In this document: one piece after another, positions 1,918 to 5,254 of the stretch
Numbering within the stretch: position 1 is the stretch's first letter
Layout of the letters: every line of letters begins with the position of its first letter
DNA from: a virus
Length of the DNA: 37,097 bases
Virus record (IMG/VR): IMGVR_UViG_3300042691_014954
Coordinates: 1-37,097 of that record
Reading direction: 5' to 3' (one strand)
Translations under genes and position numbers: made by a program
The notes under the pieces: model-generated
The model's database searches: none
What the model saw: only the letters and a program-made list of their open reading frames with translations
What the model was told of the DNA's origin: nothing

Positions 1918-4584
1918 TCACTCAAAATCAAACAATTTGCTGAATGTATTATCCGACCTAGTTGAACTGATGTCCCATTCCAAAACACCAATTAGGTTTT
2001 CTAACTTTTCATCGATAACTGTGGTTTCCATTTCACCGTCGGCGAAAGGCAAGTCTTTGAACCATTGAGGAAGTCTAAGCTCGTCAACAGGATAAGCTAC
2101 ACTAGTATAGCCCATTGGATTATCTTTGATCTTACATACAATGACTTTAGCACCATCAGTGATACTCATGCTGTATTTGTCATCATTCATGCGTTTCAAA
2201 GTATTCCAATTTAAGCTAGCTCGAACATGTCCTGGCATGTTTGCTTTGCCTTGTTTCTTTTCTTTGGCCTGATACTCAGTGATATTGTTGGCTCGTTTAG
2301 GAGAACCTTTTTCCCAACCCGGCCGTGTTTTAAATTCAGTTCTAAAATTAGTAATGTATTCTAGGACTTCTTCTTTAGGCACACCGTTTAGGACTTGTTC
2401 TAGCACTTGACTTAAGAAATCTTGAATAACAACTGGAGTGTCTGAACGTTTAAGATCTAGACCCATAGCCTTGATCTTTCCCGGTTTACCATTTACATCT
2501 GCTCGTTTACCTTCTTTATCATAATAAAGAACAGCATAGCGTTTCTTAGTAATAAACAGACCTTTTGAAGCTACTAGTTCTCTTCCTGCTTTGATAACTT
2601 CGCCGCGAGTTTTAGGACAATGAAACTTATCTTGCATCATTTTAGGAAAGCTGGCATTTACCTCATCTGCTATTTGGTCGTAGAGTTGGACTACAGTTTC
2701 TTTATTCCAAGGTAACTGACCGCTTTCAATTTCTTTTTTCAACACAGGGTAAGCGGAAAAATAACAAGAGTCTGTGTCGCCGTAGATTACAGCTTTTCCT
2801 TTGTAATCATATTCGCCTGTGGCTATTTCATTTATTTTACCAGCCATGTGTCTAACAATCTGTCTACCACTAAGTGTAGTACTTTGACCAATCCTGTTAT
2901 CAAAGAATCTACAGCCGGGATTAAGAATAGCACCATACAGGCTGTTTAGGTTAATCTTTTTAACTAATTGACGCTTGTCCCAGTATTCTTCTTCTACTTT
3001 ATTTCCGGCAGCAATACACTCTTTGAGTTTGGCCTGCATCTCTTTACGTTCAGCGTACCAGCGTTTTAACAATCCGGGAATAACACCTTCTTTTTCGTAA
3101 GTGAAAATTGTACCGTTAGCAGAAATCATCCAAGGTTGATTACTTTCGAAGATAAGGTCATAGATTTGAGCACCACTTAGGGTATCGCTACCCCCACCTT
3201 CCCAATCAATTGTAATTTCTTTGGCAATATTTCTTTCCATCACGAATTCGTATTCAAGACTACCAAATATACCTTCCCAAGCAGCAGCAAATGATTTTCC
3301 CTTGCCCATTTCCTGTTCAATGTAATTTTTTGTATAGTCTTGACGTAATTGTCCAACAATAGTCTCTGGACCCATATTCAAAGCACGAATCGCTGACGGA
3401 TACAGCGAGTTAATATCAACTGAACCGATCCATTCGTGGATACCTTTCTTTGGATACGCAACATACGCACCCGCAGCCGGCTCTGAACCAGGTTCTCTTC
3501 GGATCCTATTAGGAACAATCATTCCTCTTCGATGAGCTTCGTTAATAATAGCCTGTTCAGTAACAGCTACAGCACCCATAGTTGTCTGTAATAATACAGT
3601 ACATTCATGTGCTAGTTTGTTAGCAAGATCTAAAAACTTTAGTTTTTTGTCTAATTTATCTAACAAGGCCGTGTCTTGTCTATTGTATTCAATGAACTTA
3701 CGGAAATCGTTGTTATACAGTTGATCCAACGTACCTTCGTAGACAGTCTTGTTCTCACCTATCTCCATTTCTCCAATAGCATCAAGTCTGTATGTGTGGC
3801 GTTCTTCATAGGTATATTTGCGGTACAACTCGAGACTGTCCAGATGAACACGACCAACAAGGTCATAAGTAACAGCTTGCCTTCCATACTTCTCATACTC
3901 TCGTTTCTTTGGATATTGATCCCACAGACAGAATCTACGTGTGTCGTCTTTGCTTAATACCTTGGTTACACGATTAACAGTATAAGGAATATCAAAGCCT
4001 TCTGAGTTCCATCCGCTTAATACATCGGCGTCTTGGATTAAATTTAGGAAGTTGTCTAACAGCTCTGCTTCTGTTTCAAAAATATAAGTATTAGGAAATT
4101 CTGCTACTGCTTGTTTAGCTTCTTCTACGGTGAGAGTTTTTGGAGGTATAGCTAAACATACTAGAGTATCTAACCATTGTAAGTGTACAGCAATAGCAGT
4201 TATAGGCATAAACGCATCTTCTGGTGATGCGTAGCCACGCTCAGGATCAAAGTCTACTTCAATGTCAAAGAATGCTACATGTAATTTGGGGGAGTCTTGA
4301 TTTAGATAATTGTCTTCTAGACATCGATAAATTGGATTTATATCCGATTCATACAGCTTCATACCGCTGTGTATTTTAAGTTCTTTATGTAGGTCTTTGA
4401 GATTTTTACAAGTTACACGGCTAAGTGGTTCGCCGTTAGTACTAGTATATTTGCCCTTAGGGTCTTGAAAGTAAAAGATATGTCGAGCAGGATATTCTTT
4501 AAAATGTCTATGGCCATTATCGTCTCGTTCAACGATGTGGATAGTATCCTGATCGCGATTATAGAATGCGTCAACGTAACTCAA
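1918..4584 (-). CDS. 43: DNA polymerase, family B (T4 gp43-like)
   Basis: Replicative polymerase with 3'-5' proofreading, 888 residues (T4 gp43 is 898). Exonuclease motifs are FFDIEV (105-110, Asp107/Glu109), SGWNSEGFD (190-198) and YNRQD (300-304). Polymerase motifs are A, SVDINSLYPSAI (388-399); B, KKINLNSLYGA (542-552); and C, YGDTDS (601-606). All catalytic acidic residues are present. The C-terminus, SKLFDFE, resembles the clamp-binding tail of T4-type polymerases. The start codon is TTG at 4584, supported by AGGAG six bases upstream and by two hairpins just before it (4597-4641) that may be an autogenous operator. It follows the membrane-protein gene and precedes the clamp. Confidence 0.97.
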   Translation of the reverse strand: MSYVDAFYNRDQDTIHIVERDDNGHRHFKEYPARHIFYFQDPKGKYTSTNGEPLSRVTCKNLKDLHKELKIHSGMKLYESDINPIYRCLEDNYLNQDSPKLHVAFFDIEVDFDPERGYASPEDAFMPITAIAVHLQWLDTLVCLAIPPKTLTVEEAKQAVAEFPNTYIFETEAELLDNFLNLIQDADVLSGWNSEGFDIPYTVNRVTKVLSKDDTRRFCLWDQYPKKREYEKYGRQAVTYDLVGRVHLDSLELYRKYTYEERHTYRLDAIGEMEIGENKTVYEGTLDQLYNNDFRKFIEYNRQDTALLDKLDKKLKFLDLANKLAHECTVLLQTTMGAVAVTEQAIINEAHRRGMIVPNRIRREPGSEPAAGAYVAYPKKGIHEWIGSVDINSLYPSAIRALNMGPETIVGQLRQDYTKNYIEQEMGKGKSFAAAWEGIFGSLEYEFVMERNIAKEITIDWEGGGSDTLSGAQIYDLIFESNQPWMISANGTIFTYEKEGVIPGLLKRWYAERKEMQAKLKECIAAGNKVEEEYWDKRQLVKKINLNSLYGAILNPGCRFFDNRIGQSTTLSGRQIVRHMAGKINEIATGEYDYKGKAVIYGDTDSCYFSAYPVLKKEIESGQLPWNKETVVQLYDQIADEVNASFPKMMQDKFHCPKTRGEVIKAGRELVASKGLFITKKRYAVLYYDKEGKRADVNGKPGKIKAMGLDLKRSDTPVVIQDFLSQVLEQVLNGVPKEEVLEYITNFRTEFKTRPGWEKGSPKRANNITEYQAKEKKQGKANMPGHVRASLNWNTLKRMNDDKYSMSITDGAKVIVCKIKDNPMGYTSVAYPVDELRLPQWFKDLPFADGEMETTVIDEKLENLIGVLEWDISSTRSDNTFSKLFDFE

Positions 4585-4596
4585 ATTTTTCTCCTA

Positions 4597-4641
4597 TGCC
4601 ATTTGCGGCTGGCAAACCAAACAGATCATTTATGGCTGATC
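4597..4641 (-). promoter_or_regulatory. tandem hairpins before DNA polymerase: candidate translational operator
   Basis: Two hairpins on the minus strand, 27 bases apart, each preceded by GGTT. Hairpin A (4624-4641) is GATCA-GCCATAAA-TGATC. Hairpin B (4597-4614) is TGCCA-GCCGCAAA-TGGCA. Each has a 5-bp stem and an 8-nt loop of pattern GCCRYAAA; the stems differ but remain paired, whereas the loop is conserved. Hairpin B ends one base before the AGGAG Shine-Dalgarno (4591-4595) of the polymerase gene. T4 gp43 represses its own translation by binding a hairpin of the same size (5-bp stem, 8-nt loop) near its ribosome site. The same role here is inferred; the loop sequence differs from T4's. Confidence 0.6.
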
Positions 4642-4652
4642 AAACCTTATTC

Positions 4653-4943
4653 TTAAGTACTTAGCATCCTAACTAACCCTACTGAGTCAATTGTGACCAA
4701 CAATAGGTAATTAGCCAGCATCCCAAAGGAACCACGACTATAAGCACACCCAGCGTATATAGCACAACCAGTAATCCAAATTGGGTAAAGTATAATGAGA
4801 GGTGGTGTTGGAACGGTGAGTGCCATAGTGATAGAACAGCCAATGCTAATAGCCCAAGCAACGACCTCAAGACAAAAACGAACTCCATTGCTCGAATAGT
4901 CTTGTTTGATCCATGTAGCTGTTCCATTTAAAATATCTATCAT
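4653..4943 (-). CDS. small three-helix membrane protein, unknown function
   Basis: 96 residues, mostly hydrophobic, with about three membrane segments (roughly 21-44, 47-66 and 74-93) and a short N-terminal soluble part. The ATG at 4943 overlaps the TGA of dsbA (ATGA), so it is translationally coupled to it. A second open frame in the same stretch (4679-4927) is treated as a shadow, because this frame has the coupled start. It lies between dsbA and the polymerase in an early-looking transcript, so it is probably not a lysis holin, though three-helix topology would allow that. It may be an inner-membrane host-takeover protein; no family was recognised. Confidence 0.7.
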   Translation of the reverse strand: MIDILNGTATWIKQDYSSNGVRFCLEVVAWAISIGCSITMALTVPTPPLIILYPIWITGCAIYAGCAYSRGSFGMLANYLLLVTIDSVGLVRMLST

Positions 4944-5200
4944 TCGGGTAATCTTTTTGTAACACCTAAGATCATTTCAATTTCGTCCCACTCTTCTTCA
5001 TGGGATTTCCAATTATCTTTATGTGCGATTTTAATTGCTTTGTTAATAATACTAGGTTTTACTTGTAATTCTTCTGCGACTGCTTTTACAGTTTCTTTAA
5101 GACCTTCACTTAAATCTTCAATTTCACGAAGTACATTACCACCTTCGTTAATCAATCTTTCTAATTTTGCTTTTTCTTCAGGTCCGTACATTTTTGCCAT
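4940..5200 (-). CDS. dsbA: DsbA-like double-stranded DNA-binding protein
   Basis: An 86-residue protein when started at ATG 5200, which has GGAG seven bases upstream; a longer reading from 5254 would run across the promoter. T4 DsbA (89 aa) is a small dsDNA-binding protein that promotes late transcription. Shared features are an N-terminal MAK start, a helical body with ISEL-like charged segments, and the C-terminal pattern NKAIKIAHKDNW, matching T4's NRLLALYHKDN. The first gene of the transcript reading into the polymerase, it is served by a near-consensus sigma70-type promoter (5226-5254). The T4 gene should not be confused with bacterial disulfide-bond DsbA. Confidence 0.72.
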   Translation of the reverse strand: MAKMYGPEEKAKLERLINEGGNVLREIEDLSEGLKETVKAVAEELQVKPSIINKAIKIAHKDNWKSHEEEWDEIEMILGVTKRLPE

Positions 5201-5225
5201 TTGTAAACTCCAAGTAATAATGTAT

Positions 5226-5254
5226 ATTATATAGTCATAAAAAAAGCCAGTCAA
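5226..5254 (-). promoter_or_regulatory. near-consensus sigma70-type promoter overlapping a terminator
   Basis: On the minus strand, TTGACT (5249-5254) and TATAAT (5226-5231) are 17 bases apart, one mismatch from the sigma70 consensus. The -35 hexamer lies in the 3' arm of the terminator hairpin that ends the upstream operon, so the two signals share bases. The start site would be near 5219, giving a leader of roughly 20 bases containing the GGAG of dsbA. Confidence 0.75.

What the first reader, a model, noticed from the sequence alone, without database searches (positions are those of the whole stretch)
4597..4641. Twin hairpins with one conserved loop before the DNA polymerase gene: likely autogenous operator
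Seen directly: two minus-strand hairpins 27 bases apart, each with a 5-bp stem and 8-nt loop. The loops are GCCATAAA and GCCGCAAA; the stems GATCA/TGATC and TGCCA/TGGCA differ but stay paired, the pattern left by selection on structure plus loop sequence. The lower hairpin touches the AGGAG of the polymerase gene, which starts with TTG. Known: T4 gp43 represses its own translation through a hairpin of the same geometry near its ribosome site. Inferred: this phage uses a duplicated operator with a new loop code (GCCRYAAA), perhaps for cooperative binding.
Basis: partly seen in the sequence, partly recalled or inferred. Interest (0 to 1): 0.8.

Follow-up and report, generated by a model that had tools for sequence, protein, structure and literature searches.

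The report
Twin RNA pseudoknots before phage polymerase
Just before the DNA-copying enzyme gene of a group of uncultured, probably giant, phages, the messenger RNA carries two small knotted folds beside the ribosome landing site; hundreds of relatives keep at least one of these knots while changing its letters in matched pairs, so it is very probably a switch by which the enzyme limits its own production.

Summary
Both hairpins are exactly where stated. Structured leaders recur in 285 of 392 related polymerase loci fetched: 170 of 170 with polymerase at least 70% identical to the window's, about half at 50-70%, none below 50%. Stem changes are compensatory: phylogeny-aware sign tests give 14/14, 13/13 and about 17/17 concordant changes for the three inner pairs (p about 1e-4 to 1e-5).

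The reading needs correcting. GCC is not a loop code. It pairs with a GGY triplet 1-4 nt upstream of each stem, making each unit a compact H-type pseudoknot (GGY:GCC, short linker, 3-7 bp stem, NNAAA loop). Relatives swap both sides: AGY:GCU (25 leaders) and GGG:CCC (1); the triplets pair in 155 of 155 leaders. The window's clade has two units; more distant relatives keep the SD-proximal one, sometimes overlapping the Shine-Dalgarno.

In three records of 238-340 kb the polymerase leader is the only start-adjacent site, so autogenous repression by the polymerase is the likeliest function. Binding is untested. T4's gene 43 operator is a plain hairpin; pseudoknot autocontrol is known from T4 gene 32. 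I found no Rfam family, cultured phage or paper with this element.

The parts
4644..4646 (-). Unit 1, helix S1 5' strand: GGT, partner of the loop GCC
   Evidence: Sequence; GGT/GGC conserved before unit 1 in 89 of 93 distinct leaders
4642..4643 (-). Unit 1, linker L1 (TT)
   Evidence: Sequence
4637..4641 (-). Unit 1, stem S2 5' strand: GATCA
   Evidence: Sequence; covarying stems in relatives
4634..4636 (-). Unit 1, helix S1 3' strand: GCC (first three bases of the apparent 8-nt loop)
4629..4633 (-). Unit 1, A-rich loop L3: ATAAA
4624..4628 (-). Unit 1, stem S2 3' strand: TGATC
   Evidence: Sequence
4616..4618 (-). Unit 2, helix S1 5' strand: GGT
   Evidence: Pairs with the loop triplet in 155 of 155 leaders, with joint changes to AGY:GCU and GGG:CCC
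4615..4615 (-). Unit 2, linker L1 (T)
   Evidence: Sequence; L1 is 1-4 nt across relatives
4610..4614 (-). Unit 2, stem S2 5' strand: TGCCA
   Evidence: Covariation
4607..4609 (-). Unit 2, helix S1 3' strand: GCC
4602..4606 (-). Unit 2, A-rich loop L3: GCAAA
4597..4601 (-). Unit 2, stem S2 3' strand: TGGCA
   Evidence: Covariation
4591..4595 (-). Shine-Dalgarno AGGAG, one base after unit 2
   Evidence: Sequence; spacing from S2 to SD is mostly 0-3 nt, and the SD is inside or touching S2 in some relatives
1918..4584 (-). Family B DNA polymerase gene (888 aa, TTG start), the regulated gene and proposed repressor
   Evidence: Pfam DNA_pol_B 1.1e-35 and exo1 1.2e-18; PHROG 262 DNA polymerase 3.8e-203; RB69 gp43 structures 5.9e-66

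Best explanation
The 5' leader of the polymerase mRNA carries two tandem, small H-type RNA pseudoknots. In each, a GGY triplet pairs with the GCC that opens the hairpin loop (helix S1, 3 bp), the variable 5-bp stem is S2, a 1-2 nt linker crosses S2 and an A-rich NNAAA strand crosses S1. The SD-proximal unit ends one base before the Shine-Dalgarno. The likely working: polymerase not engaged in replication binds the pseudoknots (recognising shape, the invariant S1 G-C pair and the A-rich strand rather than stem sequence), blocks 30S access to AGGAG/UUG and so represses its own translation; when replication uses up free polymerase, translation resumes. Two units in this clade would raise occupancy or sharpen the response. 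Shown: the elements, their conservation, S2 covariation, joint change of the S1 triplets, position at the ribosome site, uniqueness to the polymerase leader in three large records. Inferred: pseudoknot folding in solution, the polymerase as ligand, repression, cooperativity.
For: Both units in all 80 closest relatives. SD-proximal S2: 110 of 110 distinct units pair at each of the three inner positions although bases vary, slid registers fall to 4-62; independent contrasts on the polymerase tree are concordant 14/14, 13/13 and about 17/17, p 1.2e-4, 2.4e-4, 1.5e-5. S1: 155 of 155 leaders pair, as GGU:GCC 104, GGC:GCC 25, AGU:GCU 22, AGC:GCU 3, GGG:CCC 1; three independent changes of pair 1, always on both sides. 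L295 (GGG:CCC) and its relatives L296/L297 (GGC:GCC), which share the same leader layout, differ on both sides of pair 3. No other loop triplet pairs with the upstream triplet (0 of 110). Single-unit leaders with joint changes show that the pairing is within a unit. Presence follows polymerase kinship: 170/170 at 70% identity or more. Genome scan: in records of 270, 238 and 340 kb the only start-adjacent site is the polymerase leader. Polymerase is a homologue of RB69 gp43, whose T4 relative represses its own translation from a leader hairpin (PMC3014915).
Against: No binding or expression data. S1 has only 3 bp with an invariant middle pair and few independent joint changes (3 at pair 1, which cannot reach 0.05 in a sign test, plus one at pair 3); the search for the triplets was limited to [AG]G[CGT] and [CG]C[CT], so part of the 155/155 is by construction. 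Some relatives at 50-70% polymerase identity lack the element. Records scanned may be incomplete, and the scan can miss units with 3-bp stems: it did not find the polymerase leader of G008 itself.
Confidence: 0.62

Rival explanations
1. Plain hairpin operator of the T4 gene 43 type: the polymerase reads an 8-nt loop and the upstream GGY is a separate single-stranded contact.
For: Stem of 5 bp with 8-nt loop as in T4; the minimum-energy fold without pseudoknots is exactly two hairpins. GGY and GCC are nearly invariant in the window's own clade.
Against: GGY and GCC change together in relatives (AGY:GCU, GGG:CCC) and never singly in a way that breaks pairing; the linker is short and stem length varies while the triplet stays just upstream.
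Confidence: 0.12
2. Operator for another trans-acting protein (a phage translational repressor or a host factor) that happens to control only the polymerase gene.
For: Nothing here shows which protein binds; T4 RegA controls many replication genes (PMC3014915).
Against: No other start-adjacent copy in three large records, unlike a regulon; no RegA family match (PF01818) in nine records, while T4 rings at 2.3e-75 in the same kind of search.
Confidence: 0.12
3. Ligand-free structural tuning of translation: the pseudoknots set initiation rate or respond to temperature, with no bound factor.
For: The unit touches the SD and in some relatives includes it (CCG-GCC-ACAAA-CGGAG).
Against: In the window the SD is outside the fold, and conserved S1 and A-rich loop against freely varying S2 suggest recognition; a second upstream unit would add little.
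Confidence: 0.09
4. A small-molecule riboswitch of the compact pseudoknot kind (preQ1, SAM-II or SAM/SAH-like).
For: Compact H-type pseudoknots near ribosome sites include riboswitches such as SAM/SAH (PMC7367207, abstract only).
Against: No Rfam match at gathering level or at E up to 2; too few conserved bases; linked to a polymerase gene only.
Confidence: 0.04

Closest known systems
Phage T4/RB69 gene 43 translational operator
   Same: Leader RNA hairpin with 5-bp stem and 8-nt loop next to the ribosome site of a homologous family B polymerase gene; proposed autogenous repression; A-rich loop (RB49 has UAAA in its loop, PMC3014915).
   Different: Here the first loop bases form a second helix with an upstream triplet, the element is duplicated, and stem sequence is free. 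The T4 leader AGCCU-AAUAACUC-GGGCU has no such triplet. Polymerases are 27% identical.
Phage T4/T2/RB69 gene 32 autoregulatory pseudoknot
   Same: H-type pseudoknot in the leader of a replication gene, used for autogenous translational repression (PMC3014915).
   Different: Different gene and protein class (ssDNA-binding protein); it lies about 67 nt upstream and nucleates cooperative binding over an A+U-rich stretch, whereas here the knot abuts the SD, is tandem and has a 3-bp S1.
rpsO (ribosomal protein S15) pseudoknot operator
   Same: Autogenous control by a pseudoknot at the translational operator (mentioned in PMC3014915).
   Different: Cellular ribosomal protein gene; different fold and no sequence relation detected (no Rfam match).

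Membership tests
H-type RNA pseudoknot | Crossing helices in the order a-b-a'-b' with complementary strands | tested here: met
   155 of 155 leaders have S1 and S2 in this order
H-type RNA pseudoknot | Covariation in the hairpin helix S2 | tested here: met
   Independent contrasts 14/14, 13/13, about 17/17
H-type RNA pseudoknot | Covariation in the second helix S1 | tested here: inconclusive
   Three joint changes at pair 1, one at pair 3, none breaking; too few for significance
H-type RNA pseudoknot | Folded in solution | not testable with these tools
   Needs SHAPE, NMR or crystallography
T4 gene 43 autogenous operator | Leader of a gp43-type family B polymerase gene near the ribosome site | tested here: met
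T4 gene 43 autogenous operator | Single hairpin with UAAC-type loop and no pseudoknot | tested here: not met
   Two units, GCC-NNAAA loops, paired upstream triplets
T4 gene 43 autogenous operator | Specific binding and repression by the polymerase | not testable with these tools
   No binding data
T4 gene 32 pseudoknot operator | Leader of the ssDNA-binding protein gene | tested here: not met
   The gene is a DNA polymerase
RegA regulon | A RegA (PF01818) gene in the genome | tested here: not met
   None in nine related records; T4 control positive; records may be incomplete
Any Rfam 15 family | Score at or above the gathering cut-off | tested here: not met
   No match in the window; none at E up to 2 in 4560-4700

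The most novel reading that the evidence does not exclude
A tandem pseudoknot operator in which two polymerase molecules bind cooperatively to their own mRNA, giving a switch-like replacement of the T4 gene 43 hairpin; an unrecognised, widespread class of viral pseudoknot autocontrol in uncultured phages.
Probability: 0.4. Interest if true: 0.78.

Novelty: new variant of a known kind. Interest (0 to 1): 0.63.

Why it matters
Autogenous control of a replicative polymerase is a textbook case built on T4 and RB69, and a 2010 review could name only T4-type gene 32 as a viral pseudoknot used for translational autocontrol (PMC3014915). Here a homologous polymerase gene in a large uncultured phage group carries a different, compact and often duplicated pseudoknot. 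Natural variation is large (free stems, three S1 types, one or two copies, loss in some lineages), which makes the question of how a DNA polymerase tells its own mRNA from DNA directly testable with short synthetic RNAs. The element is also a ready marker for annotating polymerase leaders in such contigs.

Tried and rejected
Loop motif alone as evidence: not enriched in the window. Rfam, both thresholds: nothing. Named phages: leaders of Phosso, Atu_ph07, Vibrio 2.275.O, 121Q, SCTP-2, MIJ3, XacN1, CBB, RaK2, XaC1 and CM1 show no such unit on inspection, and closer queries found no nearer cultured relative. Fixed-gap pattern in ten records: extra matches were chance or tail-like tandem repeats in G007; replaced by a stem-aware scan with shuffled controls. 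Polymerase residues that track the AGY:GCU type (e.g. K679, W78): they mainly mark one clade, so no contact residue is claimed. First regular expression for the other hairpin in distant leaders was wrong, corrected. The paper on T4/RB69 operator determinants is not held. No structure was predicted: a polymerase model would not show RNA specificity.

Full report
What is there. The window is a complete 37-kb IMG/VR virus record. On its minus strand lies a family B DNA polymerase gene (1918-4584, 888 aa, TTG start; Pfam DNA_pol_B and exonuclease domains; PHROG 262; matches RB69 gp43 structures). The next gene downstream (1118-1855) has clamp-annotated homologues in named phages and the gene two upstream (4940-5254) resembles DsbA just below the Pfam cut-off. 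The nearest named phages by polymerase are Sinorhizobium phage Phosso (469 kb) and Agrobacterium phage Atu_ph07 (490 kb) at about 47-51% identity; T4 gp43 is 27% identical. So this is a jumbo-phage-like lineage only distantly related to T4; the size of the window's own phage is not known.

Check of the observation. The two hairpins and their coordinates are right. The loop string GCCRYAAA by itself is no rarer than chance in the window. Plain folding gives exactly the two hairpins. The decisive test is comparative. All 80 closest viral-contig relatives keep two units in front of the polymerase gene, while the stems differ and still pair. The spacing of the two GCCs is 27-29 nt in nearly all twin leaders.

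Correction: pseudoknots, not plain hairpins. Every unit is preceded by GGT or GGC at a short distance from its stem. GGY is complementary to the GCC that opens the loop, in the order a-b-a'-b' of an H-type pseudoknot, with a short linker L1, no spacer between S2 and S1, and an A-rich strand (NNAAA) to close S2. More distant relatives show joint change: AGT or AGC with GCT (for example L139 AGC-AA-GCGTAG-GCT-CAAAG-CTATGC and L147 AGT-TA-GCCA-GCT-ATAAA-TGGC) and GGG with CCC (L295 GGG-TA-GTGA-CCC-ATAAG-TCAC, against relatives with the same leader layout, L296 and L297, GGC-TA-GTGG-GCC-ATAGA-CCAC). Counting on the SD-proximal unit: 155 of 155 leaders pair (GGT:GCC 104, GGC:GCC 25, AGT:GCT 22, AGC:GCT 3, GGG:CCC 1). 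On the polymerase tree pair 1 changed three times, each time on both sides. Other loop triplets never pair with the upstream triplet. Because triplets were sought within [AG]G[CGT] and [CG]C[CT], and because three events are few, I call S1 well supported but not statistically proven. S2 is proven: 110 of 110 distinct units pair at each of the three inner positions with four or five pair types each; slid registers and shuffles fall far below; independent contrasts are 14/14, 13/13 and about 17/17 concordant. Units were detected by requiring at least 3 bp, but the 80 closest leaders were read without selection and all comply.

Distribution. Of 392 relatives, 285 carry the element: 170 of 170 at 70% polymerase identity or more, about half at 50-70%, none of four below 50%. 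The twin form belongs to the window's clade. Elsewhere there is one unit: with 6-7 bp stems (L106 and L358 groups), with 4-6 bp stems and AGY:GCU (L116 and L147 groups), or with a 3-bp stem whose 3' strand runs into the SD (GGC-TTA-CCG-GCC-ACAAA-CGGAG, L124 group). In some twin leaders the first unit has a one-base bulge in the 5' strand of S2 (GCGTG, GCTGG or GCAGG against CCGC). No named phage leader examined has it.

Function. A stem-aware scan of three large records of the lineage (270, 238 and 340 kb) found the polymerase leader as the only site next to a start codon; shuffled sequence gives 0-1 per record. In a fourth record (G008), whose leader has a 3-bp S2, the threshold misses the polymerase site and returns only chance-like sites, so it is uninformative. 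RegA was not found, with a positive T4 control. A cis element confined to the polymerase gene, ending at its ribosome site, conserved with the polymerase lineage and homologous in place to the T4 gene 43 operator is best read as autogenous translational control. PMC3014915 records that gp43 binds a leader hairpin and represses its own translation when not replicating, that there is no evidence that this operator forms a pseudoknot, and that the gene 32 pseudoknot might be the only viral pseudoknot used for translational autocontrol. Binding, repression and cooperativity here are inferences.

Novelty. In kind it is a phage autogenous translational operator; as a variant (tandem compact pseudoknot for a DNA polymerase) I found no description in Rfam or in the open-access literature searched. 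Subscription papers could not be searched.

Noticed in passing
L116, L124, L147, L251, L295 and relatives, 40-70 nt upstream of the polymerase start: In distant leaders the first unit is replaced by another strongly covarying 4-bp hairpin, UC-GNNN-loop-NNNC-AUG, with ten stem types (GCUC/GAGC, GCCC/GGGC, GUUC/GAAC, GUAC/GUAC and others) in 54 distinct leaders. Function unknown; perhaps a second operator or a relic of unit 1.
   Followed up: partly
L361-L403 (for example L370, L373, L384), 20-60 nt upstream of the polymerase start: Relatives without the pseudoknot have a TTGACA/TATAAT-type promoter directly before the gene, with the -10 inside a palindrome (TACTGTATAATACAGTA), possibly a transcriptional operator instead.
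   Followed up: no
L122, L131, L132, L137, L145, L164: In other relatives without the pseudoknot the polymerase start abuts or overlaps the end of an upstream small membrane-protein-like gene (the homologue of window 4653-4943), suggesting translational coupling instead of an operator.
   Followed up: no
window 4653-4943, minus strand: 96-aa hydrophobic protein between the DsbA-like gene and the polymerase; no Pfam or PHROG match.
   Followed up: no
L041, L014, L021, L026 and others, unit 1: A one-base bulge in the 5' strand of S2 (GCGTG, GCTGG, GCAGG, GCGAG against CCGC), recurring at two positions, recalls bulged-base operators such as that of MS2 coat protein (resemblance from memory).
   Followed up: partly
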